From: Phytophthora colocasiae
Lineage: Eukaryota; Oomycota; Peronosporomycetes; Peronosporales; Peronosporaceae
Length of the DNA stretch: 64,000 bases
Direction of reading: 5' to 3'
NCBI GenBank assembly: GCA_018806915.1
Contig: JAGKQI010000099.1
Location: 434,001-498,000, forward strand
The position numbers were made by a program, and so were the translations under genes. Of the stretch, positions 5,305 to 52,997 are shown piece after piece; the stretch's first letter is position 1; each line of letters opens with the position of its first letter. The notes under the pieces were generated by a model. The model made no database searches. It saw only the letters and a list, made by a program, of their open reading frames with translations, and had not been told where the DNA came from.

Positions 5305-5354
5305 GGGTTCGCTTGAGCTGCCATCGCGTCTTCTTCCATCTTCGAGTCTTCCAT
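5305..5354 (-). pseudogene. CRN N-terminal start fragment, 5' side of the Copia insertion
   Basis: The minus-strand ATG at 5352-5354 begins an acidic N terminus (MEDSKMEEDAMAAQAN) identical to the CRN cassette starting at 26922. After 15 codons the frame meets the Copia element. The target duplication GGGTT lies at 5305-5309 and 50-54. The 5' flank (5355-5625) is also shared with the 26922 cassette, so both starts derive from one duplicated CRN promoter plus N terminus. The start is supported by conservation between the two copies. No secretion signal is evident in the short visible part. Confidence 0.7.
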
Positions 5355-27496: not shown

Positions 27497-27705
27497 CTAG
27501 GCCATCTGGTCATGGACAGTGAACGACGTTGGACAAGGCCCCGGGACATAGTGCGCGCCCGACGCTGGTTCACACACTATATTCCCGGGTACGGGACAAA
27601 CTCCCCGACCTAACGTTGTGCGTCGCACAACTCGGTCGCGCTCCATGTCTCGGAGGCACTTGACCACACGGAGCTCTTCGTCAGTCAACCTGATGTAGTC
27701 GTCGT
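27497..27705 (-). pseudogene. E0 coding fragment 1 (C-terminal part), unrecognised
   Basis: The minus-strand frame reads DYIRLTDEELRVVKCLRDM and ends at a stop at 27497. It is cut at 27702-27705 by Gypsy-2. Taking out Gypsy-2 and one TCGT copy joins it in frame to 45544-45363, giving a 128-codon ORF with a Thr/Pro/Ser-rich N-terminal half. No family was recognised. Bases 27194-27496 hold no supported gene. Confidence 0.5.
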
Positions 27706-28991
27706 TGTCGCGAAGTCGGTGCAACTTTTACCGCGGTGCAGGGGCGTACAGTGAACCTGGAAGTGTGACTACCGGTAATTATACCAGAGTCGCACAGCAA
27801 GGTGGGCGTGTGTTACCTTGTGCTGTCCTCGTAGGTTCGTTGTCTTGGTAATGAGACCCTCGCCGGGGTCGTGAGAGTGTTGGTGAGAGTGAGGGTTCCT
27901 TGCGTAGACCGTCGGATGTCCTTCTGGTCCTCACAGGAGCGCTTGAGAGTCGAACGTTTTCCGGTGAACACTTGTGTACACCAGAGATTTCTGAAGTCAG
28001 AAGAGAGATTAATACAAAGGGAAGTCCAGTAATTAGACTTCCGAGATAACCGCAATATAGAGATACGATATACAAATATTTAGCTGCTCTTATTCTTTCC
28101 TGGCCCTTGAGCAGTGGGCTAGTTCTCCAGGTCAACTAGGGAAATGTTCACCAGACACCTGGTCTGTCTGGTATTCCCGTAACTTTCGCGCACCACCCTC
28201 TAATATATAGAAGGAAAATAAACCAATACACTATCAGTTATATAACAGTCTACCGAGCGTCTTGAGAGCGACTGTCTAGCTCCCAAAACCTGTCCAAACG
28301 TACAATATGAAATGGGCTACCGCTAGAGACAAGACAAACGACCCAACTAGGAAATGGAATAGGTGGGTCCTCTCAGGTCTCTACGTTACGCTGATCTCCA
28401 CCTAAAGGGGCTTGATAGGTGAGAGATCACACGACTCAAAGCTTTGTCGTGGCCTAGTACTTACGGGAAGCAGCAGGCAGACGACCTCGTTATAACAAAG
28501 CAAATCGAACTCGTTACAACAGGGAAAATTGAACTCTTTACAACGAGGCAAATTGATCTCTGGCTATCTATCTCGTATCTCTCTCTCTCTCTTCTGTCTT
28601 CTGTCTTCCATATTCTCATATACACTTGGTCTCAGTATAACTCAGGAACTTTCACTTGGGTTCACTATGGTAGTCGATGCTGCAGATCTTGTCGAGTCGA
28701 CACTTAATGATGTCATTACAGGGATGAGCAGGTTGCGTTTCACTTGATTGCGTGAGGTCGTGTTGGGTACACTTGGTTTCAGTATGTGGACGAATTCAGA
28801 GAGTCAGAGTCTGGTATCTTGTTCATCAGGGTCTGGAATCATGTGCATCGGAGACATGTTCATCGGAAACCATGTACTCCGGAATCATGTACATCAGAGT
28901 CGTAATACCAGAGTCGTGACACTTGGGTCTGATCATCAGAGTCTTGTACGTCAGAGTCTGTTCATCGGAAACTAGTGATGTCTGGAATATT

Positions 28992-29003
28992 GCTTATATA
29001 AGC
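28992..29003. promoter_or_regulatory. Palindromic TATA-like box in the LTR (candidate bidirectional core promoter)
   Basis: GCTTATATAAGC is a perfect 12-bp palindrome, present also at 44690-44701 in the other LTR. It could position transcription in either direction, which would suit an element with genes on both strands. Function is inferred. Confidence 0.4.
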
Positions 29004-29018
29004 CGGACACATCAGACT

Positions 29019-29142
29019 TGTTCACCAGAATCATGTACGTCAGACTCATGTACGTCGGACTTCATGTACGTCGGACTTCATGTACGTCGGACTCATGTAC
29101 GTCAGACTTCTGTACGTCAGACTTCTGTACGTCAGACTTCAT
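29019..29142. repeat. Tandem array of TGTACGTCRGACT-type units in the LTR
   Basis: About seven units of 17-19 bp built on the 11-mer TGTWCDYCRGA, followed by ACTTC/ACTC/ATC spacers. The same array lies near 44718-44838. Looser copies of the 11-mer precede it (28857, 28873, 28888, 28945, 28959). Confidence 0.8.
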
Positions 29143-29665
29143 GGTGTGATATCAGAGTTTCCATGCGTGATACCAGAAATCCATGAATGTTTTTAGGGTG
29201 CGGAGCACGTATGCTACAACGCACGAAGTCCAATCGGGATATGCGCGGGGTGCGCTACGTCCGGTGCGCGATACTTGGTATCTTGTGGGTATAACTGTAT
29301 TCCTTGAACCATCATCGTCACACAGGACGGCAACGGGATGAGGTCTCTCAGAGATACATTCTTCTGAGAAACTTTCTGCCAACCTTTAGGCACTCATCGT
29401 CGGGGAAAGTCCGGCGATCAGACTGAGTGTTATTGTCTCTCGGAGTTTGTGCACTTTTCCGAGGAACACTTCTGATCTCTTGGGCCCCTTTGCAGTACAG
29501 GTGAAGGTTAATATATATAGCGGTTTTCTTCCACAGATCCATTATTGTCGCACGGGACATAACCTCGTCCCACATTTCCCTTTCTCCCACAATCCATTAT
29601 ATGTCCAATCACATCACAGCGAAACGTCCATATCCACTCAAAAAATCGTAATTAGCAACGTGTCA

Positions 29666-29677
29666 ACCGCCCCTCCT
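29666..29677 (-). other. Gypsy-2 polypurine tract
   Basis: The minus strand reads AGGAGGGGCGGT directly before the LTR TGACACG, the normal site of plus-strand priming. Confidence 0.7.
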
Positions 29678-29921
29678 GGTCATAATTCGTCAGTGCGGAA
29701 CTTTCTCCAAACTGAGCATCATGGCCAGGACAGTACATCAGAGGTCCCGTGAACATAGTGTAGCTGTGACGCTCTCAAAACTTCCGAGATTTCATAATCT
29801 CTGGTGTCCTGTCGCTCAGTCTGATTCCATCAGACTCAGAAATAGCCAACTGTCGTATCCCATAAACGGCCACATCCCGATTTCCTTTCTGACACACAAG
29901 TCAGAAGAAGATCCTGCAGCC

Positions 29922-32900
29922 ATGAGTTCCCCATCGGCTTCTACCATTGGCGACGCCTCGGGCACTGGGCCTGCTTCGGCATCTGTAGCATCGCGAGGTG
30001 GTGGTGACGGTACTTCCGCATCACCTGGTGGCAGCTCAAGCGCCCCAGCCTCACAGTCGAGCGCGTCCGCCGCTCCGAAGCAGGGCGTTGATGCTGCTGA
30101 CAGCGATAATAGCACGATCGTGCCTGCCACGTCTACGGCTTCTGCCTCCACGAATCCTTCTTCCAGCGTCTCAACTCCATTCCCTAGAGGGCCGCACATC
30201 CTTTCCACCACTGAGGTGGATAGCCTGTTTGCGCCTGGGCAACAACTATTGGGCGACATGACTGCTGACGCCCCTTCCAACTGGGTGGACCCTGAGCCAA
30301 CGCCTGACGGACAGCCATTCCTGGTTGGTGTTCCGGCGCTCGCCGAGGACTTCCGTGTGGCAACCACATCGCGAACATCTATGGCGGACCTGGTGTTCTG
30401 GTGGGCCTTGAAGAGTTCACGTCGGCGGACATCTCGGAGCTTGAGCGTGTTATCCCTGACTTCACTGAAAGTCAGATGCTCGTTCCTCACGTGGATAGCC
30501 GTGACCGCCAGAACCTCGAAGCGCACATGGGGTCCGTCGATGTCCATCGGGAGTTGGCGTCAATCCTCCTGCACCTCCTCATCAGCGTCTCGCTGAGCGG
30601 GTGTACAAGACATCCGGCTATCTGAAGCAGATGGCCGGCGCTCACCGTCGGCTTCGACTTCAAGTTGAGTCCCAGGGCAACACATCTCTGGTGGACACGG
30701 CCGCTATCCAGAACGAGTCCGAAGATCTCAAGCGTCAGTGGGTTTTCAACTGCCAGTATTGGCGCCATGAAGTGCTGGACGCCCGACGTACTGCTGGTGA
30801 GGTCGAAGATCGTCTGAATGCAGAGTCCAAGAGTCTCGCGGCCCATTATCAGGACCAGATAGATGCTCTGGAGTCCGAGAAAGCGGCCTTAGAGGAACGC
30901 CTGGCGGACTCTCAAACGGAAGTCCGGTTGCTGAAGGCTCGCCCCACGACCACGGCCACAGACTCCTGGGGTTTTCTGGAGTACCTGTTTGAACACGGGG
31001 AGTTGAACGGCAATTGGGTGCGTCTTCGGGAGCTTCTGGTGAACTTCCAAGAGGGCAAGGCGCCGCCTGGAGACTGGGACACTATCATCAATGTGACGGC
31101 AATGGATCAGCGTAAGGCGGAAATTCCTGACTTCTCCAAGCGTCTGGCGAGAATTCGCTTCGATCAAGCTGCGGAGGCCAAGAAATCGACCAAAGTGCTG
31201 GATCTGACGGGTGCTGGCAGTGGTGTGAAGGTCTCCGGTGAACATGCGGGTGGCCCCGAAAAATCAGGCACTCGCCCGGTGAACAAGTCTGGGTCGCCCA
31301 CCAGGTCACCCAAATCTTCCGGATCTCCACCACTCAAGCCCAACCGGCCGTCTGGGAAACATCGGGTTCGTGTTCCTCAGGATCGCCCCAAGAATTACAC
31401 GCCTGGTATCGATTCGGTGCGTCCGGCGAACGCCAAGTCTCCGGTGTCCAAGGACGTGGTTCACACCACATTACCACCTGGAGTCGTCTGGAAGAAGTTC
31501 GTCCGACTTGCGCTTGGCTCTGCTCGCCGGCATTTCTTACGAGACAGCGATGAAGTGGCTGCGCACGGACAAGCCCGCCCACAGTCTGTTCACGGGGCGC
31601 CCTTGGTAAAAATGCTAGTGAGCATGATGTACTGGCGCAAGCTGAATCAGACCTCGTGGACTTCGTACGTCCCAGAGACGTATTACAAGATGGCTGAGGA
31701 GGAACTGCGCCGGCTTCAGAAGAACGATGTGGAGCCACCGGTCTGGGAGGCACTGACGCTCACGTCCCGTATCCCATCAGTGAGCCTGAGTCCACAGAGG
31801 ATGACCCTCAGAAGGACCCGGACTTCAAGGAGTCTGGTGAACAAGAATCTGCATCCAGCGACAGCGAGTCTGACGACGAGAAGTCGAGCGGCAACAGCGA
31901 TGACTCTGACGACGATGAGTCTGATGATCATTCGCACGCCGGCAACAAGCGTCCACGGGACTACGAGTCCAGCGACTCGGACGACTCGGGTCCGATAATC
32001 CCTACCAAGAAGTCCAAGCGGGATAGTGTACACGAGGCATCCAGGTCCAAGTCAGGCAGTCAAAAGTCCGGTGGCACTTCCACGTCAAGTCCCAAGAGCA
32101 AGAAATCCGGTGGTTCGCCCAAGTCGAGTTCCAAGGACAAGAAGTCTCAAGACTCCAAGTCGCCTAAGAGTTCTTCGGGCAAGCGACCTTCTGGTAAACT
32201 CCGGAAGTCAAGTCTGGTGTCCAAGTCGTACAAGTCGCTGACGCCAAAGGAATTACTGACGATCGAGGCCCCGGACACACATTGTTCTTCGTGGTTGTAC
32301 TACGGCATTCCGGTCCAGCCGACAAGTGACACCAAGACGTCCATCGGGCAGACTCCAGGGTTCCCAGACTTCGAGCCCCACAGACACAGTCTGGCACGCC
32401 TCAAGAAACGTTGGAATTCCAAGAAATACCAAGCCCTGCTGGATGAAGTGCCAGCGCCCTGGGACGTCATGTACCAGAACCGTCGGACCGAGCTGTACTT
32501 TCACCGGCGTGAAGACCTCTGTCCCTTGGTTCAGGCGGACATCGAAGAACTCGCGTCTCTCATGCGCAAGCACGCCCAAGCGCTATGGGAACGCACTCAC
32601 TGGGTGATCATGGATCCCGACGAGGACCTGCTGTCCGGTGAACAGCACAAGGAACGTGGGCTCCGACGTGCATCGTTACTGCGCCAATATCGAGGGGCAG
32701 TATCCAAGATTCTGAAGCACAAGGATTTCCCGGAAACGCTCATGTTCGAGCCTGGTATCTGGAAGGTCCCGGACAAATATTGCCCATGGATCTGGCAGGA
32801 CCCACGTGCACGTGACATCGGAGGTCCTGCGCCTGAGCTTGCGCAAGCAACTCGAAGCTATCGACTCAGCGGAACCGGCGCGCACGCAGTGGGCCACAGC

Positions 32901-33000
32901 GTCTTCCGACAAGGACTGGATGGAATTCGTGCCATCCGATCTCCGGAAACAAGCTCTGACGCCCGCTGAACGCGCCGAAAATCCTGTCTCTCTGAAGTAA
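29922..33000 (+). pseudogene. Gypsy-2 antisense ORF (aORF), about 1000 codons, frameshifted
   Basis: Plus-strand coding opposite to gag-pol, starting 257 bp inside the LTR boundary. It begins with a Ser/Ala/Gly-rich N terminus (29922-30200), then a conserved helical region (FTSADISELERVIPDF at about 30415) leading into a long coiled coil (about 30600-30920). Next are WGFLEYLFEHGELNG (about 30967), a basic Ser/Pro/Lys tract (31200-31400), an acidic Ser/Asp stretch with nuclear-localisation-like KKSKRD (31760-32030), and a conserved C-terminal domain (32240-33000: PWDVMY, ELYFHRREDL, FEPGIW, DLRKQAL). Frame changes lie near 30390, 30570, 31755 and 32815. The first conserved block and the C-terminal domain match the aORF of Gypsy-3. 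No known family was recognised. It might be a structural or nuclear protein. Confidence 0.75.
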
Positions 33001-33384
33001 GTACGCCAGAAGTCCGGTGTACTCTTCGCGACATCTCCGGGGAACTACATTTCTTCTTTCAGAACAACTTAGTCGTATGCATATCGTAGCGTAATAACAA
33101 TTCCCAATATAGTTCCCCGACGACCTTCTCCTTTAACATCCTCATATGTCGTTCAGTAATCTCCTTCTCATAGCATCATCATAATCCATTAGTAAAATTC
33201 CATCATACACACACAACCACGAAATCATCTCCATACAAATTCACATAACAATCACCATCACTGGGAGTCACGTATCCCTGAAATCACATTTCCGAAAGAC
33301 ATGTCTCTCAGACGCCTCATCTCTGAAATACATCGTCTGGTGAACAGTGATGTTCACCAGAGTTCTCAGAATAAGTCTCAGAGT
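33001..33384. other. Convergent gap between aORF and pol
   Basis: 384 bp between the stop of the plus-strand ORF and the stop of minus-strand pol. It is A/T-richer than its flanks and carries a motif copy at 33351-33361. Probably holds both 3' ends. No ORF supported. Confidence 0.5.
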
Positions 33385-35260
33385 TTAAACTCTGGGGTGA
33401 TCGTCTCCAGCTTGCATTGCTTGGAAACGAGCTCGCGCTCGTGCGCTCTGATTGAACTCATACAGTAAAGCGCCACAGTTCAGCTTTGACAAGGGTAGCC
33501 ACTCTGTCTCGTCAAACCCCATCCACTTGACCAGGTATTCGCGAAGTCTCTTGGAGGTCCTGGTACGTTAGCTCCACCGAGTGTCAAGGATCTTTTCCAC
33601 TTCGTATTCATCATTCTCGGTGTCGGGCCCCAACTGTCTTCTGCAACAGCGCTGCATCAAAGTCATCATCCTCGCGAACATCGAGTTCCACAGTCGGTCT
33701 TCTGGGAAACAAGGCTCTCGGCTTCAGGCGACTTATATGAACCCAAGGGTTCACCCGATACCCGGTATCCTCAACCTTCAGTTTCACACGAAAATCGTCC
33801 AACATCTCTTCGATCCGGAAAGGGCCGTGCCACATGTGTGCGAGTTTCCGACTCAACCCCGTTTGTACCTTGGGGATGTATAACCACACGGCATCACCGA
33901 CGGCAAATCCGGACTTCAGACGTTCCGACAACTCCTTCCACTTTCGAGTCTGTTCTTCAGAACGCTCCCGCTTGGCCTTCTTCTGAAGCTCTTCAGCACA
34001 GGCTTGAGCGTAGCTGTAATCTCGCTGCATCTTCCGACGCCACTCATAAGCAGTGCGCTCTTGTACACCAGAAGGCTTTGGACCAAGCATTGCGGACACA
34101 GTCCCATGAGCATCCCATCCGCGCACCAGAAAGAAGGGTGTTTCCAGACGGGTCGCATCAAAGGAAGTATTCAATGCGAACATCAGACGCTCGGCGTGAT
34201 CGTCCCAGTCACTCTGATCAGCTTCGGCGATGTAAGCCTTGATGGCGCGCACGACCGTCTGAACAGACCGTTCTTGTTGGCCGTTCGCCTGGGGACGGTA
34301 CGCCAGAGTCGCTCGCTGTCTGCTTCCCAGGAGGTCCCGGAAACACCTGAACACTTCACTCATGAACCGAGGGTCTTGATCATGGCGTATCAGGGAACTA
34401 GCTCCGAAGTTCCGGAAGACACGTTCCTCGTAGGCCTCAGCGACATCTTGAGCCGTAGTAATACTCATGGGCTTGCACATCACATATCCTGAGAACATGT
34501 CTTGGAACAACAACAGGAACGTGTTGCCTCTGGCAGACTTTGGCATGTGCGTCACGAAATCCATGGACACCACCTCAAAAGGTCGACTGGGCTCGATGTT
34601 ACCGGGCGACGGTCCAGGATTCGGGGGACGCCCCTTGCCACTTGCACAGTCCATACACTCTTTGACGAACCTTTCCACATCAGCGTACATACCAATCCAG
34701 TAGAACTCGGAGCTCAGCTTCTCGAACGTACGTTTGATTCCCTGGTGAGCACCCTGGTAATCCCCATGAGCATAGTGCAGCATATCAGCATGCAAGTCTC
34801 TGGGAACCACAAGTCTGAGTTCATCGACCATGTCTCTCGGACGTTCTCTGGTAGCACGGCTGAGGCGGTACAAAACGTCTCTGGAATCCAAGATGAAGTC
34901 ATCGGCAATCCTGGCCAGCTTCCTCACTCGGGGTCGTGGTAGATCTCCCACGTCACCCTTAAGGAACTTAATGAGTTCTGCCAGATGAACATCTTGAGTC
35001 TGGTGAACTTTGATCCGCCGCCAGCGTTCTTCCTGAAACTCTAATGGGCCCATGGGTTCACGAGCCTCCGCGTCATCTGGTAGGTTTGCTTCTTCCTGAT
35101 TGCGTGCACGAGTGATGGCAACAAGCACCTTGGCAGCATGAGGCAGGGGCGCAGACTCTGGCCCTGGGTCATCCATCTCCGGTGTACAATCATGTTCACC
35201 AGAGGTCTGGTGAACATCGTCCGGGGCTTCAGAAGACACTCCTTCGGGAGGCTTCATCAA
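33385..35260 (-). pseudogene. Gypsy-2 integrase and chromodomain
   Basis: An open frame of 549 codons (35260-33611): a spacer with GPLEFQEERWRRIKVHQ, H2C2 zinc finger (H-YAHGDYQGAHQG, CMDCASGKG), and catalytic core with SMDFVTH, RHDQDPRF and PQANGQQERSV (D, D, E). A C-terminal domain follows with DAVWLYIPKVQTGLSRKLAH and NPWVHISRLKPR. A frameshift near 33610 moves the chromodomain (YLVKWMGFDE-type, then GALLYEFNQSARARARF) into another frame ending at TAA 33385-33387. The chromodomain suggests targeting to modified histones. Gypsy-3 carries the same domains without the shift. Confidence 0.85.
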
Positions 35261-35294
35261 CTTCTCTGGGATCTTGACACCAATTTCAGATGAG

Positions 35295-36131
35295 TCAGTT
35301 CGTCAGGGTCTTGACCTGCCAGGACTCGCCAAGAACAAGAGTCTTGGACGTCAAATAGTCCGCTGCTTGGTTGAACTCACGCTTCACGTGCACTAGCTTC
35401 AGAGACTGGAACTTGATCTTCAGAGACTCAAACTCGGCCAATTTCCGCTGCAGGTTCGGCTGATTACAATTGATCAGACCTTGGGCTTGCTGTATAGCGA
35501 TACGGGAGTCTCCGACAACTACCAAGTCTCGGATGCCACGTTCCAAAGCCAACTTCAATCCATTGATCAAACCACAGTATTCTGAGTCATTCACAGTGAC
35601 ATCTTTCAGAGCGAACCCTTGGGCTTCCAGGATGTTCCACCCCGGGAGCTCCCAGAGCACACATCCGCAGCTTCCCAGGCGAGTGGATGTCTTGGCGGCA
35701 CCATCAAAACTCAGAACACAACCTCGGTAGTCAGCCTCTAGCATCTCCACGCTAATGGGTGCTGGAGGTTTGACTCGCCCCTTGACGGGGATGAGGTTTT
35801 CAGAGACCTCATCGAGGTGTTCACGGGGTGTGATGCCCGCTCCAAGAATAGCCGGGAGACCATCTTCATCTCGCTGGATTCTGCGAATCTCCAAGTTCCA
35901 ATGTGACAACTTCAATCCCCACTTCACGTTCCGACCATCAGCCGAGCTGGATGACAGGAGCCATTTCAACACCGAATGTCTGGTGTACACCGTGATCACG
36001 GGACTCGTGTTTACCATAGCCCGAAAGTTCTCCAGAACCCTGAGAATCGCGATGACCTCCTTCTCTGCAATGTGATACCGGAGTTCTGCCTCATTCAGCA
36101 CACGTCCAGTGAACCGTACGGGGTGTATCAC
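35295..36131 (-). CDS. Gypsy-2 RNase H end plus additional (aRNH-type) RNase H
   Basis: The first 90 residues are the C-terminal half of the Gypsy RNase H (ELRYHIAEKEVIAILRVL, TRHSVLKWLL). After a linker (about residues 95-145) a second, independent RNase H fold follows: LSFDGAAKTST (D), VNDSEYCGLI (E), VVGDSRIAIQQ (D) and NQAADYLTSKTL (D), i.e. the RVT_3/archaeal-like RNase H signature with all four acidic positions. Such a second RNase H is reported for some oomycete Gypsy elements and for plant Tat. The frame ends 35 bp before the next one (integrase). Confidence 0.85.
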   Translation of the reverse strand: MIHPVRFTGRVLNEAELRYHIAEKEVIAILRVLENFRAMVNTSPVITVYTRHSVLKWLLSSSSADGRNVKWGLKLSHWNLEIRRIQRDEDGLPAILGAGITPREHLDEVSENLIPVKGRVKPPAPISVEMLEADYRGCVLSFDGAAKTSTRLGSCGCVLWELPGWNILEAQGFALKDVTVNDSEYCGLINGLKLALERGIRDLVVVGDSRIAIQQAQGLINCNQPNLQRKLAEFESLKIKFQSLKLVHVKREFNQAADYLTSKTLVLGESWQVKTLTN

Positions 36132-36253
36132 CCATCGTACTCCTGTCCCAAGACGGCTGAAGCAGCCTCCACGGGTTCGTACATGAGGTATAATGACGAA
36201 AGGTCTGGTGCGATCCGGGTGTCTGAGGAGCGGTGTCGAGACAATCTTGCGCT

Positions 36254-37713
36254 TCAGAATCTCAAAGGCTTCCTAGCTCGAGCCAAATCTCGACCAGCAC
36301 GAATCTGTTCATCAGACAACTCGTAGAGCACAGCAGCGATCACCGGTAAGTCCTCGATAAACTTGTTGTAGTAATTCAGACTTCCCATGAAGCTCTGTAC
36401 TCCCTTGAGTGTCGACGGGAACGGCAATTCCTCTACTCCCTTGACGATCTTCGGTGTAGCTCTCAGTCCTTCAGCACTGATCTCATGCGACAGATAAGGA
36501 ATCGTCAGCTTCCCGAACTCGCTCTTGGGCAAGCTCACAGAAATGTTCCAGTATCTGAGTCTGAAGAGCAAGGCGTTCAGGTCTTCACAAAGTTGATCCC
36601 AGGTGGGCGCCCCATGAGCAATGTCGTCAATGTAGGAACTTCTGACCGAGTACCGGTCCCATGAAGGACGGACTGGATGTTCCTCTGAAAGACAGTCATT
36701 TGGTCGGTGAGCACCGGAACCCTGGCATGTGTTCATTAGAGTTCTGAAGTTGTTCACCAGACATCAGACCATGTACGTCAGAGTTCTGGGGTTCTAACTT
36801 CAGGAATTCCAGCACATCGGGGTCAACTCTCAGCTTCTTCTTCAGGTGACAATCGCACGAACTCCCCACAGGCAGTTATCCAACATCGCCTGGTATACCA
36901 GGGGCGCGTTCTTCAGACCGAAGGGCATTCTTACCCACTGGAAATGTCCAAATGGGCAGATGAACGCTGAGATCAGCCTCGCACGCTCCGTCATTCGAAT
37001 AGCCCAAAACCACTCGCCATATCCAGACTCATAAACCACAGTACTGCCTCAAACCAATCAACAGATCGTCTATCAGGGGCAACGGATAACGCGACAACTG
37101 GATAAAACCATTCACCACTCGATAATCAATGCACATGCGTATGTCCACACCATTCTTCTTGGAGGACAATCACAATTGGTGATGCCCAAGGCGAAGTCGA
37201 GTATTCGATGAGTCCGGTCTCCAGGAGTTTCTTCAGAAGTTCGTACACCTTGATCATCAGGTGAGGGGCAACGGACCTCGGACGTTGGGCAACAGGTTTA
37301 GCGTCTCCCACGTCCAAGTCACAGACCACGCCCCTTGCCGGGGCAGGTGCGGCATTGCTGTCTCCCAGAAAGATTTTCCGATGATACTTCAGAATGTCCC
37401 TGAGTTTCTTCTCCATTTCCGGCGTTGTTTTCCCGGGTACCCTGACGTCAGCCTTGTCGATATCGCATTCGGGAGTCAGGATCTTCCAATTCAGGCAGCA
37501 TAACCAGTTGGTCACGTAATTGAGAGAGTAGGTCCGTTCCTTCCCGTATGTAGACACCGGGTTCCAGATCCAACTCCTCATTCGTGACTCGCATGCACCG
37601 CTCGTACTCGGCTCGGAGCTTTTCCACAGGGGTGCCTGGCATACACTGGATTGGGATGTCCCATGAACAGTCTGTCGGATCCTCATCTCCCATAAACAGT
37701 TCACTAGAAACAC
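36254..37713 (-). pseudogene. Gypsy-2 reverse transcriptase, in three frames
   Basis: Segments: 37713-37126 (finger region: TPEMEKKLRDILKYHRKIFLG, then YELLKKLLETGLIEYSTSPWASP), 37039-36842 (FQWVRMPFGLKNAPLVYQ) and 36757-36254 (catalytic YIDD in SSYIDDIAHG, SLPKSEFG, FMGSLNYYNKF). Gaps are explained by small indels near 37130 and 36800 and by an insertion-like stretch around 36720-36840 that contains two copies of the 11-bp motif. RT copies element RNA into cDNA. All core motifs are present, so the enzyme was recently functional. Confidence 0.8.
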
Positions 37714-39113: not shown

Positions 39114-40811
39114 TTAACTGTTTCCAGAGTCAGCCTCGTCACCCAGGAGTCTCTCCAGTAGGTGATCCGGCAGGTCCTTCAGTGTACCTTGACGGGCTAG
39201 TTTCTTGAGGGATTCCAGAGTCTTGATGTCTTCGCATGGTCTCCCAGAGTGCACCTTTCCGCAAACCTCACACGGCGGTACTCGGCACATCCTGCTCGGG
39301 TGACCTTTCTCCTGACATCTGTCGCAGACAATGTCTCTCCAACAGTTCTCTTCAGAGTGACCCGAGCGGCGACACTTCTCGCAGAACTTGTTCCAGTAAT
39401 CAGGGTTGTCCCGACGTGTATGTTGGAAGTCTTGACCTGATGATCCTCGGGGAGACTGGGGCGGCGGTCGCCATCCCATGTTATCCATGACTCGGTAGAC
39501 TTCGTTTGTCAGAGTCTGAGTCCAATCAGCACCACCAGGCGCCTGAGAGGCAGATTGTACACCAGACGAAGATTGTACACCAGACATCTCGCGATCGTGC
39601 TCTGACGACGAAGCTCTGGCATCCTTCTCTTGAGTTCTGGTATCCACATCGACATCGTCAGAGGCATTCGAGTCTGCTTCTCGGGCGACGTAAGTCTTCC
39701 CCATACGCTTCGGCTTAAACTGTCCGCGTGGGAGATTGTCCGCTCGGAAATCCCGATGTCTGGTGGTCGTAGTGTCTTGATCAGCTGTTCGCCAGACATC
39801 TTCGTCCTGTTGCAGAGCATATTCCAAGTCCGAGATACTCCTGAACTTCCGGCCTTGTAACGCGATCTTCAGACGCTCGTCCTTCAGCTTGGTGATGTAC
39901 CTCAGGACATGTTTCTCCAGGCGTCTGGAGGATTTTCTGAAGTCCACCTCAGCTTTTCCGGCGGCCGAGTTCAGGCGATAGAAGAAGTCCAACGGAGTCT
40001 CGGAACTCTTCATTTCCATCGTGAAATATCTCTCGGAGTATGATGACCGGGCCTTGCAATAGCGCCTGCGAAACTCCGACGATAATTCCTTCCAGTTACG
40101 GGAAACGCTCTTCGGAAGCTGGTTGAACCAATCTCTGGCAGACACCGGAAGCTTCAGCTTGAGTTCCTGTATGCGGGTCTTGTTCGTCCATGCTCCCTGA
40201 GATGCCATGTTCACGAAGCGCTCCCACCAGTGAACACGCTCCCGTAGTGTCGCTCGGGGATCAAATTCTCCGATGATACTGGAGTTTATGAAGGGCCTCA
40301 TAGTCAACAAGGTCGCTCCAGCTTGTCCCTGGGACGCAGAAGTCAGGTTGACCACCTCCGGAGGATCCAAGTCATCAGAAGACGAATCACTTGAGTCCGA
40401 GTTTGAATCACTGGAGCTTCCACCCGGGTCTGGGTCATTCCTGCGTCTTCCAGGCCTTCGCGGAGCGTCCCGGCCATCTTCAGAGCGTCTTTCGCTTGGT
40501 TTCCGGTGTCCTTCGCGCCTGGGAGTCGCTGGGCGCCTTCCTTCAGTCTTGATCTCGGTCAGGGGAGCCGCTTGAGCCGTCTGGGTCGTCGTAGCGGCCG
40601 CGGTGGCCGCGCCATGCCTTCCAGCCTTCGCGCGCTTGGTGTCGGTCGTTCTCCGTAGGGGAAGAGGCGTATGGAAGGCCTCCGTCGTTTTAATGGGTGT
40701 AACCCTACCCCTGCTGGCGACTCCTTCTGATCCCCTAACCCCCGGTGTGCAATCTCCCGTATCCCGACTGTTCACCAGAAGTCCGGGTTGCCGGTTTAGG
40801 GTCATGTTCAC
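39114..40811 (-). CDS. Gypsy-2 gag
   Basis: 565 codons, uninterrupted. The N-terminal 170 residues are basic then Ser/Asp-rich. A retrotrans_gag core follows (VHWWERFVNMASQGAW, WKELSSEFRRRYCK, DFFYRLNSAAGKA; about residues 195-290). Three zinc-binding clusters follow: CEKCRRSGHSEENC, CDRCQEKGHPSRMC and CEVCGKVHSGRPC (about 470-530). Gag forms the particle and binds RNA. Which ATG is used is not certain; there are several before the core. Confidence 0.9.
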   Translation of the reverse strand: MNMTLNRQPGLLVNSRDTGDCTPGVRGSEGVASRGRVTPIKTTEAFHTPLPLRRTTDTKRAKAGRHGAATAAATTTQTAQAAPLTEIKTEGRRPATPRREGHRKPSERRSEDGRDAPRRPGRRRNDPDPGGSSSDSNSDSSDSSSDDLDPPEVVNLTSASQGQAGATLLTMRPFINSSIIGEFDPRATLRERVHWWERFVNMASQGAWTNKTRIQELKLKLPVSARDWFNQLPKSVSRNWKELSSEFRRRYCKARSSYSERYFTMEMKSSETPLDFFYRLNSAAGKAEVDFRKSSRRLEKHVLRYITKLKDERLKIALQGRKFRSISDLEYALQQDEDVWRTADQDTTTTRHRDFRADNLPRGQFKPKRMGKTYVAREADSNASDDVDVDTRTQEKDARASSSEHDREMSGVQSSSGVQSASQAPGGADWTQTLTNEVYRVMDNMGWRPPPQSPRGSSGQDFQHTRRDNPDYWNKFCEKCRRSGHSEENCWRDIVCDRCQEKGHPSRMCRVPPCEVCGKVHSGRPCEDIKTLESLKKLARQGTLKDLPDHLLERLLGDEADSGNS

Positions 40812-40886
40812 CGGAGATCCGACTTGAAGTTGCTACTTCAGGGTGGGCGACCCCTTGAACTTGGGACAATGTTGCACGAAGGTTCC

Positions 40887-42500
40887 TCAATTCTGCGGCC
40901 TGAAACGCTGCATGTTCTGGGAACTTTCTCGCTCCCTGTCGCGCTCCGACTCCACGTCGTGCACCCGCTGTCGTAAGGTCTCCATTTGCGACATCCAGTC
41001 ACGTTTCAGCTCGTCTGCCCAACGCGCACGTTCGGCTTCGGCCTCGGCTTCCCGTTGTTTCCAGCGATCTGCAAACTCGGTCTCCAGACGCTGTACGTCG
41101 GAAAACTGTTCACCAGAAACTTGTTCGTCGGACACCTGTCTCTCAGACGACTTCGAATGGTACTTGAGCTTGGACTCTGACGCTTGACTCCGACGTTCTT
41201 CCAAGTCATCCGCGCGTCTCTGGGCTTCCAGCCTGGCGCTCTCAGACCTCAAGTAGTCGGTCGGTAAGTGTCTGATCTGCTGGTGCGTATCAAGTTCCCG
41301 TTGTTCACGTCGACGTTCACGCTCCATGGATTCCAGACGTTCTCTGGCCAGAAATTCCTTCTGCTCCTGTTCCATCCGACGCTGCCATTCCTGTTGCTGC
41401 CGCATAACGTTCAATTCGATCTGCGCTGGGCCTGATCTCTGGGAACTTCGTGTGTGGCTTGACGCAACGGAACTCAGGTGTCTGGAAGACACTTTCTGGT
41501 GATCCTCGCTCTTCAGACTCTGGTGCCTGCTCTGGTGGCTTCTCCCACGACTCGAGACGGACGATGATGGGGCTTCCGGCGTCCGGTGAACAGAATCTCT
41601 GGTAGACAACTGCTTCTCGGACTTCACTTCTGGAAACTCCGGCTTCTCTTCCAACATCTCGAAGTCTTCAGGCTCCGACTTCACCGGCATCAGTGTTCGT
41701 GTCACGTGGATTCCCATAGACTCTCCGGCGAGCATTCTTCCGGCTTCAGCACCTTGGGCGATCATCGCCAGACCTCCGACAGACAACGGCATATGTGTAG
41801 ACGCCCCTCGACTCATGGACATCAGCGACGAGTCTGTGGAACTTCCACGAGAGGTCTGGAGTCCCGACGAGTGGTCGTCAGACGTACGCGAGGTCCCAAT
41901 GACACTTGGCACAGGCGCATCAGTCGTCAGAGAGCTACCTCGATCTTCAGACATTGGCACACCAGACTCCAAGTGGGTGCTATCAGAATGACTCTCGTAT
42001 ACCGGCAGTGAACTCAACGACGGCGTCGACAGTGCAGATGGTGTCGACGAGACTTGCGGGCGTGGCGGACCATGTTGCAGGCGCTTGGACTGCGGCGGTT
42101 CTCCACTGCTGGACCCGTCAGAACTATGTGTGACTCTGAGTCCGGTCACCCGGAGTCTCATAATCAGCTGTCGTCCTTGTAGGTCAGCCTTCTCATCGTG
42201 TAATATACCATCAGCTTCGCCTTGACGTGCTTCGTTGCCTGCTTTTGTGTCTTCTGGGAGTCGATTGACCTGTGACCTGGCGGTCACCGTGGCCCACTCG
42301 ACCAGTTCTTCAGCAAGTCGGCTCTGAAGCTCCGTCGCCACACTGCGCACTTGAGGTTCGAAAATAGCAGACGCTTGGGTCTGAGACCACCTCGGTAGCA
42401 GGTTCTGGAACTCAAATCCTGCTTCATACAGCATCGTCTGAAGCACAGCGACGCATTCAGGTGCCGTCAGAGTATTCATCGAGATCTCGACGTATGACAA
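40887..42500 (-). CDS. Gypsy-2 extra ORF1 upstream of gag, coiled-coil protein
   Basis: 537 codons ending 76 bp before the gag frame, same strand. The N-terminal third is helical (LTAPECVAVLQTMLYEAGFEF). The middle is Ser/Thr/Pro-rich with an acidic patch (PVKSEPEDFEMLEEKPEFPEV). The last 200 residues are a strongly charged coiled coil (QQQEWQRRMEQEQKEF onward). No enzyme motif was seen. Plant Ogre elements also carry an ORF of unknown function before gag, so a parallel is possible. The frame probably continues upstream (42501-43320) across indels. Confidence 0.75.
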   Translation of the reverse strand: MSYVEISMNTLTAPECVAVLQTMLYEAGFEFQNLLPRWSQTQASAIFEPQVRSVATELQSRLAEELVEWATVTARSQVNRLPEDTKAGNEARQGEADGILHDEKADLQGRQLIMRLRVTGLRVTHSSDGSSSGEPPQSKRLQHGPPRPQVSSTPSALSTPSLSSLPVYESHSDSTHLESGVPMSEDRGSSLTTDAPVPSVIGTSRTSDDHSSGLQTSRGSSTDSSLMSMSRGASTHMPLSVGGLAMIAQGAEAGRMLAGESMGIHVTRTLMPVKSEPEDFEMLEEKPEFPEVKSEKQLSTRDSVHRTPEAPSSSVSSRGRSHQSRHQSLKSEDHQKVSSRHLSSVASSHTRSSQRSGPAQIELNVMRQQQEWQRRMEQEQKEFLARERLESMERERRREQRELDTHQQIRHLPTDYLRSESARLEAQRRADDLEERRSQASESKLKYHSKSSERQVSDEQVSGEQFSDVQRLETEFADRWKQREAEAEAERARWADELKRDWMSQMETLRQRVHDVESERDRERESSQNMQRFRPQN

Positions 42501-43320
42501 GTCTTGATTCGGCCAAAACTATGGCGCCTCAAGCAGAACTACGATATACACATGTCTTCCGGAAATACTGAAGATCACCGCCTCTTGATATAATCGCCCG
42601 TTGCTGCCGCAGCCTTCTGAAAGACATTTGCGTCAGGCTTCGCTGTTCGCCAGGCGTATTCGACGTTCGGCGGAACAATTCTTCCAGCGTCCATGTCCCT
42701 CCAGCGGCGGAACTCACGGCGTACGTACTTCAGGGCACGTTCTCCATCCAGCGAATCGGCTCCTCCCAGACTCATCAGACGGTGTCTTCAGAGAATCTTC
42801 GACTTCATCGGCATGTCATCAGACATCGGAGTGTCTTCGGACTTTGGAGTCTTCGAGACACGTTCATCAACCAGTCCGGGTTCCGTCTTCACTTCCCACG
42901 GACTTCCCAGAAGTCGTCGACTCCAGAACACAAGTCAATGACCTCCGGGGACTTCAACCACATCGGCGCCTCCTCAGACGCCTCATCACCACCCTCACGG
43001 GCAGTGGCCACCTCGTCACCAGAAGCTTCAGCTTCGGACGGACCTTCCTCAGAACCTTGTTCGCCAGACACATCGGGTGTCTCTTGGGCTTCAGGCTCCG
43101 CAGCAGGCTGGTCTTCGACCGCCGGCTCCGTGACGTTCACCTCCTCGACTGCTTCCTTTCACGTGCAGCCTTCCTCTCTCAGCGTGCCGCCTTCTGAACA
43201 GCATCCAAGTCGGGTTGTTCGTCAGGCGGAAGACCTTGAAGACGCTTCGACTGACGTGTCGCCATACTGCGACCACCGCGTCCCCGACGTCCTCCTCTCG
43301 TAGTTCCATGTGAAGCCATC
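42501..43320 (-). pseudogene. ORF1 N-terminal region, broken frames
   Basis: Starts at an ATG near 43317-43319 (MASHGTTRGGRRGRGG, basic) and runs into an acidic frame (43140-42889: EPAVEDQPAAEPEAQETPDV) and a basic helical frame (42775-42575: ALKYVRREFRRWRDMDAGR). Single-base changes between them would make one protein with 42500-40887. Function unknown. Confidence 0.5.
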
Positions 43321-43389: not shown

Positions 43390-43406
43390 GATCCGCACGC
43401 GCACCA
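43390..43406 (-). other. Gypsy-2 primer-binding site
   Basis: The minus strand reads TGGTGCGCGTGCGGATC two bases after the 5' LTR end. TGG pairs with a tRNA CCA end, and the rest would pair with an acceptor/T-arm. The tRNA identity was not determined. Confidence 0.7.
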
Positions 43407-43408
43407 GT

Positions 43409-45362
43409 TGTCGCGAAGTCGGTGCAACTTTTACCGCGGTGCAGGGGCGTACAGTGAACCTGGAAGTGTGACTACCGGTAATTATACCAGAGTCGCACAG
43501 CAAGGTGGGCGTGTGTTACCTTGTGCTGTCCTCGTAGGTTCGTTGTCTTGGTAATGAGACCCTCGCCGGGGTCGTGAGAGTGTTGGTGAGAGTGAGGGTT
43601 CCTTGCGTAGACCGTCGGATGTCCTTCTGGTCCTCACAGGAGCGCTTGAGAGTCGAACGTTTTCCGGTGAACACTTGTGTACACCAGAGATTTCTGAAGT
43701 CAGAAGAGAGATTAATACAAAGGGAAGTCCAGTAATTAGACTTCCGAGATAACCGCAATATAGAGTTCCGATATACAAATATGTAGCTGCTCTTATTCTT
43801 TCCTGGCCCTTGAGCAGTGGGCTAGTTCTCCAGGTCAACTAGGGAAATGTTCACCAGACACCTGGTCTGTCCGGTATTCCCGTAACTTTCGCGCACCACC
43901 CTCTAATATATAGAGGGAAAATAAACCAATACACTATCAGTTATATAACAGTCTACCGAGCGTCTTGAGAGCGACTGTCTAGCTCCCAAAACCTGTCCAA
44001 ACGTACAATATGAAATGGGCTACCGCTAGAGACAAGACAAACGACCCAACTAGGAAATGGAATAGGTGGGTCCTCTCAGGTCTCTACGTTACGCTGATCT
44101 CCACCTAAAGGGGCTTGATAGGTGAGAGATCACACGACTCAAAGCTTTGTCGTGGCCTAGTACTTACGGGAAGCAGCAGGCAGACGACCTCGTTATAACA
44201 AAGCAAATCGAACTTCGTTACAACAGGGAAAATTGAACTCTTTACAACGAGGCAAATTGAACTCTGGCTATCTATCTCGTATCTCTCTCTCTTCTGTCTT
44301 CTGTCTTCCATATTCTCATATACACTTGGTCTCAGTATAACTCAGGAACTTTCACTTGGGTTCACTATGGTAGTCGATGCTGCAGATCTTGTCGAGTCGA
44401 CACTTAATGATGTCATTACAGGGATGAGCAGGTTGCGTTTCACTTGATTGCGTGAGGTCGTGTTGGGTACACTTGGTTTCAGTATGGGGTGGACTTCAGA
44501 GTGTCAGAGTCTGGTATCCTGTTCATCAGGGTCTGAATCATGTGCATCGGAGACATGTTCATCGGAACCATGTACTCCGGAATCATGTACATCAGAGTCG
44601 TAATACCAGAGTCGTGACACTTGGGTCTGATCATCAGAGTCTTGTACGTCAGAGTCTGTTCATCGGAAACTAGTGATGTCTGGAATATTGCTTATATAAG
44701 CCGGACACATCAGACTTGTTCACCAGAATCATGTACGTCAGACTCATGTACGTCGGACTTCATGTACGTCGGACTTCATGTACGTCGGACTCATGTACGT
44801 CAGACTTCTGTACGTCAGACTTCTGTACGTCAGACTTCATGGTGTGATATCAGAGTTTCCATGCGTGATACCAGAAATCCATGAATGTTTTTAGGTGCGG
44901 AGCACGTATGCTACAACGCACGAAGTCCAATCGGGATATGCGCGGGGTGCGCTACGTCCGGTGCGCGATACTTGGTATCTTGTGGGTATAACTGTATTCC
45001 TTGAACCATCATCGTCACACAGGACGGCAACGGGATGAGGTCTCTCAGAGATACATTCTTCTGAGAAACTTTCTGCCAACCTTTAGGCACTCATCGTCGG
45101 GGAAAGTCCGGCGATCAGACTGAGTGTTATTGTCTCTCGGAGTTTGTGCACTTTTCCGAGGAACACTTCTGATCTCTTGGGCCCCTTTGCAGTACAGGTG
45201 AAGGTTAATATATATAGCGGTTTTCTTCCACAGATCCATTATTGTCGCACGGGACATAACCTCGTCCCACATTTCCCTTTCTCCCACAATCCATTATATG
45301 TCCAATCACATCACAGCGAAACGTCCATATCCACTCAAAAAATCGTAATTAGCAACGTGTCA
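43409..45362 (-). repeat. Gypsy-2 5' LTR
   Basis: Direct repeat of 27706-29665 with scattered SNPs and small indels (for example a shorter CT run near 44285). Holds the same palindromic TATA-like box at 44690-44701. Confidence 0.95.
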
Positions 45363-45366
45363 TCGT

Positions 45367-45595
45367 CCAGTAGAGTATATGCAGCACAGGGAGTGGTAGT
45401 AAAAGTAGTCGCAGGACGAAGAGCCGTAGTCGAACTTGAAGTTGAAGCAGTCGTAGGAGCATCAGGGTAGGGAGTAGTAGGGGGTATCGAAGCAGGGTCC
45501 GGAGTAATCGTAGCAGCGCGCCTCGTAGTAGATGGCGGATCCATCGGCTGGGCAGTCACGGCAACTTCGTCGGCGGGGCAACCGCGGCGGGGACG
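45367..45595 (-). pseudogene. E0 coding fragment 2 (Thr/Pro-rich), between two Gypsy insertions
   Basis: The minus-strand frame from ATG 45544 is rich in Thr, Pro and Ser (MDPPSTTRRAATITPD) and joins in frame to 27701-27497 across Gypsy-2. On the other side it is cut by Gypsy-3 at the GACG duplication (45592-45595) and resumes at 61455. No family recognised. Confidence 0.5.
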
Positions 45596-47115: not shown

Positions 47116-49046
47116 ACCGTCCCTCTCATCATGAGCTCTCATTGAGCAATTTGCTTCCGAGGTGATAGGTCGCGATGAGACGAAGCAAGACGAAGGCATC
47201 ACGATCAAAGTCCAGTCGGTTATCCAGGAGAAGTCGTCCGCCAGTAAATCGGTCAAATTTCCACGCAAACTCCAATTCGGTTCTCCAACTAGCGGAGGTG
47301 GCGTCTTTTCTTCACCCTGTCCCAACTCAGCCAATCAATTCACGTCAAAAAATCCCAACAAGCTCACACGCTCACTTTGCGATATCGCGGCTGCTGAGCG
47401 CTCCAATGGAAGCTGCCACATCGTCACACACATCTCCGACGGCCACACCTGCAGCTCAAGCAGGCCCCGGATCAAGTAGCACCTCCACACATGATTCAAG
47501 CCTCGCTGGCAGTCAATCTGACGTCCCTAAGCGGTCTTCGGGAGGGGATAATGTACAACCAGGGGGTGGAAAAGCGCAGGAAGGCGAGAGCAATGATGAA
47601 CATCATATGTAGCATTTCAACACACACACAACCAATACAGTCCAAACACACAAGCAGTCAAATCAATCAATTTTAGGGGTGACTACCACTAACCTCCCAA
47701 AATGCAGTTATAATATGAAATAATACCCGAAAGTATCAACTGAAATATGAAATGGAAGGGGTCACGCCCGGGATACGCCGCCCGGATCACCTTTCCAACT
47801 TGGTCTTACCCTGGCGGAGATTCACGCGGCGGTGACGCTTGTCGACGCGGCCTGACGCTTGTTCGGCTACACGTGAAGCCCTCTTCTCGAGGCTGATCCA
47901 CGGCTCCTCACAGTGTGTCTTGGGAACACCTTCCAAGACTTTGCACTTGCGCCCTTGGTGGCAAATTGAACTCTCTTTAATGTATAATAGCTAGCACTAG
48001 CTAAACATGCAAAAATATACTTGGTTTCACTATGTAGTAGGGGCGTCTCATCAGGAAGAGGCTTGCGTTTCAGTAGAATACCACAGAGTCGAAAAACATG
48101 GAAGAATTCCAGCTGGCTCCGGACACATCATCGTCGGTCGTCTTGGTCGGTCGGAAATATATGGGCTTGAGTATACTCGAAACTCAACCAGGATACTGGG
48201 TAAAAATATAGCCAGTCACCGATAGTCCAACGTTAGCCTCCACTTCGAACCTTCGACTGCTAGCTTGGGTCTCGCATATAATCCAGAAATATACCCCATT
48301 GGTCATGGCGTTACCGAAAAGTCACTTGGTTTCCGCATACTGATCATCCGGAGTGAATCATCCGGAGTATGTCAGGATCTTTTGGAGTCGCTTCCATCTT
48401 TTGGAGTTGGTGACCCCTTCCCAGGCTTTCCCTCGTCCCTTGGCACCCACGATTGCGCCTTAACCCTGAAATCGTCTGGACCAATAATATCCTCAACGCC
48501 GCTCTGGCTCTGGGAACCGGCAGTCCATAGAAAATTTGTAGAGTCACAGCTTCACAACCGTCCCTCTCATCATGAGCTCTCATTGAGCAATTTGCTTCCG
48601 AGGTGATAGGTCGCGATGAGACGAAGCAAGACGAAGGCATCACGATCAAAGTCCAGTCGGTTATCCAGGAGAAGTCGTCCGCCAGTAAATCGGTCAAATT
48701 TCCACGCAAACTCCAATTCGGTTCTCCAACTAGCGGAGGTGGCGTCTTTTCTTCACCCTGTCCCAACTCAGCCAATCAATTCACGTCAAAAAATCCCAAC
48801 AAGCTCACACGCTCACTTTGCGATATCGCGGCTGCTGAGCGCTCCAATGGAAGCTGCCACATCGTCACACACATCTCCGACGGCCACACCTGCAGCTCAA
48901 GCAGGCCCCGGATCAAGTAGCACCTCCACACATGATTCAAGCCTCGCTGGCAGTCAATCTGACGTCCCTAAGCGGTCTTCGGGAGGGGATAATGTACAAC
49001 CAGGGGGTGGAAAAGCGCAGGAAGGCGAGAGCAATGATGAACATCA
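46182..49046. repeat. Tandem duplication of the Gypsy-3 LTR/aORF junction
   Basis: Units 46182-47605 (1424 bp) and 47606-49046 (1441 bp) are essentially identical except for a deletion of about 17 bp in the first (near 46850). The duplicated block has the 3' 930 bp of the LTR plus the first 490 bp of the internal region with the aORF start. Confidence 0.92.
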
Positions 49047-52518: not shown

Positions 52519-52940
52519 TGTAACGGGGATGTTACACGAATGTTTCTCGTTGGTGTGTGACACACGTGGATACATTTATGTGGGTACATAATGGTGTGTG
52601 ACACTCATGGATACATTTATGTGGGTACATAATGGTGTGGCACACACGAGTAGATACGTAGATGGCCTCAGAGCCTCACGTTGCATTTTGATTAGGATTT
52701 AGTATGTTATATACTAAATCCGTTACATTTAAAATTAGGGCAATAAAGTCAATAAAAATCAGTTTGCATTTTACATAGTTAGTGTTAGTCCTTTGTTATA
52801 GGGACACTGACTCTGTGAGTCCCGTATTTAGTGGACTACTTGGTTCTTGTATAGAACTGAGGGCTAGTGCCTTGCAAGCAGGACTCTACGAGTCAACTAA
52901 ACTTCCTCTGTACGGTGCACATCTACGCAGCCCCGCTGCA
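52519..52940 (+). repeat. Gypsy-4 5' LTR
   Basis: TGTAACGGGG...CCCCGCTGCA, 422 bp, preceded by GAACA. Contains a short direct repeat with GTGTGACAC and ATGTGGGTACATAATGG. Confidence 0.95.
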
Positions 52941-52997
52941 TCTGGTAGCACTTGTAGTCAATCCAACTCCTGAGTTTAAGACTGTTTCTCTGTGAGA

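What the first reader, a model, noticed from the sequence alone, without database searches (positions are those of the whole stretch)
29666..33384. Long antisense ORF between pol and the 3' LTR of a 17.7-kb Gypsy element
Gypsy-2 codes gag-pol on the minus strand, yet its last internal 3 kb code on the plus strand. This is a protein of roughly 1000 codons with a Ser-rich head, coiled coil, basic and acidic tracts and a compact C-terminal domain. Gypsy-3 has the homologous ORF in the same place. Shared motifs include PW(D/N)xMY, ELYFHxREDL and FEPG(I/V)W. Antisense ORFs in this position are known from plant Tat-lineage elements. Finding one in oomycete elements with an additional RNase H suggests a convergent or shared life-cycle function (silencing suppressor, structural or nuclear protein).
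Basis: partly seen in the sequence, partly recalled or inferred. Interest (0 to 1): 0.88.

Follow-up and report, generated by a model that had tools for sequence, protein, structure and literature searches.

The report
Backward gene in oomycete jumping genes
Large jumping genes in a genome that is likely a Phytophthora's carry an extra gene of about 1,000 codons on their opposite strand; the two copies in this window are broken, but intact copies elsewhere in the same genome bear the mark of selection for their protein, which is predicted to enter the cell nucleus and likely helps the element survive there.

Summary
The block is a real protein-coding gene, antisense to gag-pol, between pol and the 3' LTR of Chronos-like Ty3/gypsy elements. 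The window copy (29721-33000, +) is not one open frame: at least four frame breaks split it. The Gypsy-3 copy (48610-50730) is broken too and lacks about 310 codons. Elsewhere in this genome one copy from each of five diverged, colinear families (25-53% identity) is open for 1,020-1,138 codons. Of 108 integrase matches, 81 have the C-terminal domain antisense within 5 kb and 7 more only the N-terminal domain. Within families pN/pS is 0.17 and 0.16 (15 and 13 copies, chosen for open frames). All 25 database relatives found are Phytophthora proteins of unknown function without Pfam domains. No TRP28 domain of the plant Retand proteins was found, so the shared position is likely convergence. Two lineages (four copies each) lost most of the gene through short-repeat deletions; some keep an open pol, and the copies compared sit at different sites, so the gene is not needed in cis. 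Predicted: soluble, coiled-coil, nuclear protein. Anti-silencing is my best guess, untested. No transcript evidence; both structure models failed. The main text of the 2017 Chronos paper does not mention it.

The parts
27699..27703 (.). target-site duplication TCGTC (second copy 45363-45367)
   Evidence: sequence
27704..29665 (-). 3' LTR of Gypsy-2
29605..29609 (+). CCAAT box in the LTR end, 115-116 bases before the antisense ATG in the six F1 and F2 copies looked at; possible promoter part, not shown
29666..29681 (-). polypurine tract next to the 3' LTR (sense strand minus), same in the F1 and F2 copies aligned
29721..33000 (+). antisense gene (F1 family), decayed: upstream ATG at 29721, second ATG at 29922, stop 32998-33000; at least four frame breaks
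   Evidence: intact relatives
32211..33000 (+). region of the conserved C-terminal domain (about 260 residues)
33611..35302 (-). pol piece: integrase; the chromodomain seen in L010 and L025 is outside this copy's open frame
35295..36272 (-). pol piece: RT-type RNase H followed by additional RNase H (RVT_3)
39117..42518 (-). gag region, two open pieces (39117-40832 with a weak gag match, 40890-42518 with no Pfam match)
43390..43406 (-). primer-binding site next to the 5' LTR (by position and its TGGT start; tRNA not identified)
43407..45362 (-). 5' LTR of Gypsy-2
48610..50730 (+). antisense gene of Gypsy-3 (F3 family), broken, with an internal deletion of about 310 codons
51002..52531 (-). Gypsy-3 integrase with chromodomain

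Best explanation
The block is a decayed copy of a protein-coding gene that Chronos-like Gypsy elements, in a genome that is likely a Phytophthora's, carry antisense to gag-pol next to the 3' LTR; its product is predicted to be a soluble, coiled-coil, nuclear protein that likely acts in trans on element copies, most likely by countering host silencing. Shown: the position, five families with open frames, protein-level purifying selection within two families, faster divergence than integrase, and lineages that lost the gene yet are found at several sites. Inferred: transcription from a promoter in the LTR end or leader, nuclear import by the basic clusters, self-association by the coiled coil, action on element chromatin or RNA.
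For: Coding: pooled pN/pS, bootstrap median 0.170 (95% 0.143-0.200) in 15 F1 copies and 0.164 (0.137-0.196) in 13 F2 copies; variable sites by codon position 78:53:257 and 37:29:198. Long frames in five families. Linkage: of 108 integrase matches, 81 with the antisense C-terminal domain, 7 with the N-terminal domain only, 4 shared-deletion copies, 16 none found; of 35 F3-F5-type integrases, 28. Vertical inheritance: identity to the Gypsy-3 integrase and to its antisense C-terminal domain fall together: F3 95-97% and 85-92%, F4 with F5 88-91% and 43-53%, F1/F2 82-84% and 32-35% (rows covering most of the query). Nuclear prediction: a basic cluster follows the acidic tract in 5 of 5 families and 20 of 25 database relatives; no 19-residue window above hydropathy 1.61 in any of these 30. 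Not needed in cis: two deletion lineages, four copies each, five of the eight with pol open for 1,777-1,957 codons; the two copies compared in each lineage have unrelated flanks. Host-facing: F1-F2 identity 0.515 for this protein, 0.847 for integrase-chromodomain, 0.58-0.74 for gag pieces (one pair).
Against: No transcript, peptide or localisation data. The promoter scan was not significant: 3 mismatches at best, and 1,310 of 3,000 shuffles do as well or better. Both AlphaFold2 models are poor (mean pLDDT 40 and 49), so no fold supports a function. Faster divergence may be looser constraint rather than an arms race: the Ser-rich head has pN/pS 0.71-0.75, and one gag piece diverges nearly as much (0.58). 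The deletion lineages may mean the protein is dispensable rather than supplied in trans. Copies for pN/pS were picked for open frames. F2 integrase has pN/pS as high as the F2 antisense gene (0.160 and 0.164). The basic clusters lie in lysine-rich low-complexity sequence, where such motifs arise easily. Anti-silencing rests on analogy recalled from memory.
Confidence: 0.38

Rival explanations
1. The protein is a brake or switch on the element's own sense transcription or RNA export, in the way HTLV-1 HBZ works: antisense gene at the 3' LTR, nuclear, regulatory.
For: Same position and strand relation as retroviral antisense genes (PMC11963269, passages read; PMC7264820, parts 1 and 2 of 3 read); predicted nuclear localisation; deletion lineages that escaped a brake could still spread.
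Against: A self-limiting gene would be expected to be lost more often; it is kept in five families. No regulatory domain found.
Confidence: 0.22
2. The protein is part of the particle or pre-integration complex, for example carrying it into the nucleus or tethering it to chromatin.
For: Coiled coil and basic clusters; pol already carries a chromodomain, so chromatin contact likely matters to these elements.
Against: Deletion lineages were copied to new sites without the gene in cis, though other copies could have supplied it; expression from the opposite strand is a poor way to make a particle component in ratio to gag (inference).
Confidence: 0.2
3. The antisense transcript, not the protein, is what matters: tail-to-tail transcripts make double-stranded RNA and small RNAs that limit copy number.
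For: The two genes converge with about 390 bases between stops in L010. Small RNAs at a probable convergent overlap of a gene and an LTR element are described in P. infestans (PMC3522703, passages read).
Against: pN/pS of 0.16-0.17 and third-position variation mean the amino acids are under selection. The effect may exist beside the protein.
Confidence: 0.05
4. It is a host gene captured by one element.
For: No match to other transposon proteins in Pfam; origin unknown.
Against: Found in five diverged element families, beside antisense integrase; all 25 relatives found are Phytophthora proteins of no recognised family. Two of those searches scored only the best ~8,000 candidates, so a distant host relative is not excluded.
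Confidence: 0.07
5. It is an envelope-like gene.
For: Position between pol and the 3' LTR.
Against: Opposite strand; no hydrophobic stretch like a membrane segment in 30 proteins.
Confidence: 0.02

Closest known systems
Chronos Ty3/gypsy elements of oomycetes (Ustyantsev 2017, PMC5348765)
   Same: RT-type RNase H followed by additional RNase H, integrase, C-terminal chromodomain, oomycete host (host here inferred).
   Different: The paper describes ORF1 and ORF2; 'antisense', 'opposite', 'third ORF' and 'reverse orientation' do not occur in its main text. Section 5 and passages were read; its figures and supplements were not seen.
Antisense ORFs (aORF-3R) of plant elements: Grande gene23, RIRE2, Retand with TRP28 (PMC7264820, PMC11963269)
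   Same: [quoted passage not shown] dual RNase H in the Tat lineage (PMC5348765, passages).
   Different: No TRP28 (PF04195) match and no other known domain; different hosts and element clade; Chronos-like elements also have a chromodomain.
Boty antisense ORF of Botrytis and Sclerotinia (named in PMC7264820)
   Same: Antisense ORF in a non-plant LTR element.
   Different: Sequence not compared here.
Retroviral antisense genes (HTLV-1 HBZ), as cited in PMC11963269 and PMC7264820
   Same: Antisense gene at the 3' LTR.
   Different: No homology test was made; function unknown here; HBZ is far shorter (recalled).

Membership tests
Chronos elements | Dual RNase H (RT-type followed by additional RNase H) | tested here: met
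   RT_RNaseH then RVT_3 in the window piece 35295-36272 and in L010 and L025 pol
Chronos elements | Chromodomain C-terminal to integrase | tested here: met
   L010, L025 and window Gypsy-3; not in the open frame of window Gypsy-2, whose pol is broken
Chronos elements | RT phylogeny within the Chronos clade; archaeal-like type of the added RNase H | not tested
   no tree was built
Chronos elements | Oomycete host (Peronosporales or Pythiales; one copy reported from Aphanomyces) | tested here: inconclusive
   genome unnamed; the 25 relatives found are all Phytophthora, P. citrophthora up to 78% identity over 37% of the F1 protein
Plant Tat-type antisense aORF | Antisense, between pol and 3' LTR | tested here: met
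Plant Tat-type antisense aORF | TRP28 / Transposase_28 domain (97% of Retand clusters) | tested here: not met
   no PF04195 for F1 at E up to 5, F2 at E up to 1, F3-F5 at E up to 10; for the other 21 members only 25 of 45 matched families were listed, none of them PF04195
Retroviral envelope | Transmembrane segment, sense strand | tested here: not met
   strand
HBZ-like antisense regulator | Transcription from an antisense promoter in or near the 3' LTR | not testable with these tools
   no RNA data; motif scan not significant
TE anti-silencing factor (VANC type, recalled) | Loss of silencing marks on the element when the protein is present | not testable with these tools
   needs chromatin or small-RNA data with and without the protein

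The most novel reading that the evidence does not exclude
Oomycete Chronos-like elements have independently assembled the same kit as plant Tat elements, an added RNase H plus a long antisense nuclear gene, and use it as an anti-silencing factor that works in trans. The gene-deleted lineages would then be cheaters living off full copies, making these elements a natural experiment in selfish-element cooperation.
Probability: 0.25. Interest if true: 0.82.

Novelty: new variant of a known kind. Interest (0 to 1): 0.64.

Why it matters
Antisense genes near the 3' LTR have been noted in plant and fungal elements and in some retroviruses, and in the retrotransposons their function is unknown (PMC7264820). 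Here is an apparently unrelated one in what is likely a Phytophthora, in elements that also share the dual RNase H with the plant ones. That makes it a second test case for why the two traits go together. The gene-deleted lineages give a built-in contrast: same element, with and without the gene. Relatives are filed as hypothetical proteins of Phytophthora, so they may be counted as host genes by mistake.

Tried and rejected
Structure: AlphaFold2 on the full protein (A1, 22 sequences) and on the C-terminal domain (A2, 20 sequences) gave mean pLDDT 40 and 49; no fold search was run because the models are not reliable. PDB sequence searches gave no credible match. Weak Pfam matches (TPR_MLP1_2, YL1, DUF4407, NBP1 and the like) are below the curated cut-offs where these were printed, and those placed lie mostly in the coiled-coil or acidic parts; rejected as homology.

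Promoter: an INR+FPR-like block (definition from PMC3599244, passages read) sits 31 bases before the upstream ATG, but its match is no better than shuffles. Kept only as a guess.

Module exchange as the reason for the faster divergence: synonymous change between F1 and F2 is saturated in both genes (pS 0.73 and 0.78), so no swap is needed; not excluded.

Integrase matches without the gene: 16 of 108 remain unexplained; at one locus (C52) the two are on the same strand. L047 showed that an earlier miss was a list cut-off. The integrase search scored 108 of 3,583 candidates and the antisense searches 136-150 of 392-557, so the counts are lower bounds. An earlier count with fewer rows gave 81, 6, 4 and 17; one search used every listed row. 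Rows left out elsewhere: one search transcribed 150 rows (one search reports 151 matches); one search used the first 35 of 103 rows and 60 of the rows (F3-F5 ones); for the integrase pN/pS I took 18 of the 21 loci with a single unbroken match (L021, L034, L036 left out by hand) and lost L032 to a stop, leaving 11 F1 and 6 F2.
Full report
WHAT IS THERE. The window is C48:434001-498000 of an unnamed 92.5-Mb genome. Gypsy-2 is a single insertion: LTRs at 27704-29665 and 43407-45362, 98.98% identical, flanked by TCGTC on both sides. A primer-binding site abuts the LTR at 43406 and a purine tract abuts the LTR at 29666, both read on minus, so gag-pol on minus is the sense strand and the plus-strand block is antisense, next to the 3' LTR. 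Pfam finds an RT-type RNase H followed by a second RNase H at 35295-36272 and an integrase at 33611-35302. Relatives L010 and L025 add a chromodomain after the integrase. This is the domain order of Chronos elements (PMC5348765, results section 5 read in full). No RT tree was built, so I write Chronos-like.

THE WINDOW COPIES ARE BROKEN. The plus-strand block runs from an ATG at 29721 to a stop at 32998-33000, but across several frames. Gypsy-3's copy (48610-50730) matches the F3 family at 84-91% and lacks about 310 codons, with a few shared bases at the junction.

INTACT COPIES. A search with the window's C-terminal domain gave 151 matches in this genome. Of the 150 rows transcribed, 39 lie in frames of 1,050 codons or more. 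I fetched 15 F1 and 13 F2 copies chosen for open frames; the frames are 1,113-1,118 and 1,123-1,140 codons stop to stop. A second search from Gypsy-3 showed three more families. One fetched copy of each has 1,020 (F3), 1,037 (F4) and 1,077 (F5) codons; representatives of all five align along their length at 25-53% identity. In the same stretch the other five frames reach at most 291 codons in the four F1 and F2 copies checked.

LINKAGE. All 28 fetched F1 and F2 loci have the integrase antisense, downstream of the gene. Genome-wide, of 108 integrase matches, 81 have the C-terminal domain on the opposite strand within 5 kb (median 1.4 kb between starts), 7 have only the N-terminal domain, 4 carry a shared deletion, and 16 have none found; at one of those 16 the two lie on the same strand. 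For F3-F5-type integrases it is 28 of 35, none on the same strand. Identity to Gypsy-3 falls together for integrase and for the antisense domain: F3 95-97% and 85-92%, F4 with F5 88-91% and 43-53%, F1/F2 82-84% and 32-35%, as expected if the gene has travelled with pol. Both searches were capped.

SELECTION. Pooled pN/pS (bootstrap median) is 0.170 (0.143-0.200) in F1 and 0.164 (0.137-0.196) in F2; integrase gives 0.072 (11 copies) and 0.160 (6 copies). Variants shared by two or more copies fall on codon positions 78:53:257 and 37:29:198. The Ser/Gly/Ala-rich head is near neutral (0.71-0.75), the stretch before it 0.30-0.32 and the first linker 0.27-0.29; the N-terminal domain, coiled coil, middle domains, acidic-basic linker and C-terminal domain lie at 0.07-0.20. 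The stretch between the two ATGs also looks coding: between F1 and F2 pN is 0.28 against pS 0.78, and a short motif in it recurs in F3-F5. So the upstream ATG is the better start in F1 and F2; the F5 copy has no ATG upstream of that motif, which I cannot explain. Between F1 and F2 the protein is 51.5% identical, integrase-chromodomain 84.7% (medians), gag pieces 74, 58 and 70% in one pair.

RELATIVES. Three searches of 5.8 billion proteins found 25 proteins, all from Phytophthora (capsici, palmivora, sojae, citrophthora, ramorum, cinnamomi; one known only by a JGI Phyca label), hypothetical or uncharacterised where named, none with a precomputed Pfam domain. Two of the searches scored only the ~8,000 candidates sharing most words, so absence elsewhere is not shown. 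Whether these relatives also sit in elements was not checked.

WHAT THE PROTEIN LOOKS LIKE. From the start: a short conserved stretch, a low-complexity head, an N-terminal domain, a coiled coil, a helical domain, an acidic then basic low-complexity linker, and a C-terminal domain. A basic cluster of the K-K/R-x-K/R type follows the acidic tract in 5 of 5 families and 20 of 25 database proteins; the remaining five end before it or lack it. No membrane-like stretch in any of the 30. Both structure models failed, so the helices named here come from alignment pattern and a weak model.

LINEAGES THAT LOST THE GENE. Five integrase loci without a listed antisense domain were read. One (L047) does have it. 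Two (L043, L044) lack everything from about codon 184 to beyond the stop, with the same junction at a 6-base repeat; two (L045, L046) lack F3 codons from about 320 to 1,000, again with one shared junction, at a 15-base imperfect repeat. The junction patterns occur four times each in the genome, without mismatch. Pol is open for 1,916 codons in two of the four F1-type copies and for 1,777-1,957 in three of the four F3-type copies; the other three have 537-1,176. The two copies compared in each lineage share no sequence in the 270-700 bases beyond the LTR; the other two of each were not compared. So elements without the gene were copied to new sites after losing it. Deletion between short repeats is what template switching in reverse transcription would leave (inference). 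The gene is therefore not needed in cis; it is either supplied by other copies or needed only for longer-term success. Selection on the intact gene makes the second reading, or partial self-preference, necessary as well (inference).

MECHANISM, MARKED. Shown: gene, strand, linkage, selection, loss lineages. Predicted: nuclear, self-associating. Inferred: expression from the LTR end or leader; action in trans on element chromatin or RNA; countering of silencing as the most likely role, because the protein diverges faster than the integrase beside it and is dispensable for the copying of a given element. P. infestans makes small RNAs against Gypsy elements (PMC3522703, passages read), so there is something to counter.

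WHAT IS KNOWN. Antisense ORFs in this place are described for plant Grande, RIRE2, Retand and PvRetro13 and for Boty of Botrytis and Sclerotinia (PMC7264820, parts 1 and 2 of 3 read; PMC11963269, passages read). In Retand, 97% of clusters encode TRP28; I found no TRP28 match here. The 2017 Chronos paper describes ORF1 and ORF2 and its main text has no 'antisense'. Searches for antisense ORFs in oomycete or Phytophthora retrotransposons showed no report among the listed titles and abstract openings of the held open-access library (only the top 1-20 papers of each were listed). Subscription papers, supplements and Repbase were not seen. A brown-alga paper notes a gene for 1,104 residues on the opposite strand of a DNA transposon, a different kind of element (PMC12477816, passages).

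Noticed in passing
46169-49046: Tandem duplication of 1.45 kb (98% identical) that joins Gypsy-3 LTR sequence with the first ~145 codons of its antisense gene.
   Followed up: partly
about 29035-29145, and L010/L012/L019 LTRs: Short tandem repeats around GTACGTCAGACTT in the F1 LTR, variable in number between the copies aligned and not seen in the three F2 copies; a candidate protein-binding array.
   Followed up: no
52519-60078: A different chromodomain Gypsy element (LTRs about 422 bases, 98% identical; plus strand; RT, RNase H, integrase, chromodomain; no second RNase H found in its 1,004-codon frame) nested in Gypsy-3.
   Followed up: partly
6339-9332 (-): 998-codon open frame with a Crinkler effector N-terminal domain among the transposons.
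   Followed up: no
2839-4836 (+): Copia-type reverse transcriptase frame, between a 240-base direct repeat pair at 55-294 and 5070-5309.
   Followed up: no
L041 (F5): The open frame runs 137 codons before its first ATG, through a motif conserved in the other families: lost start, splicing, or a non-ATG start.
   Followed up: no
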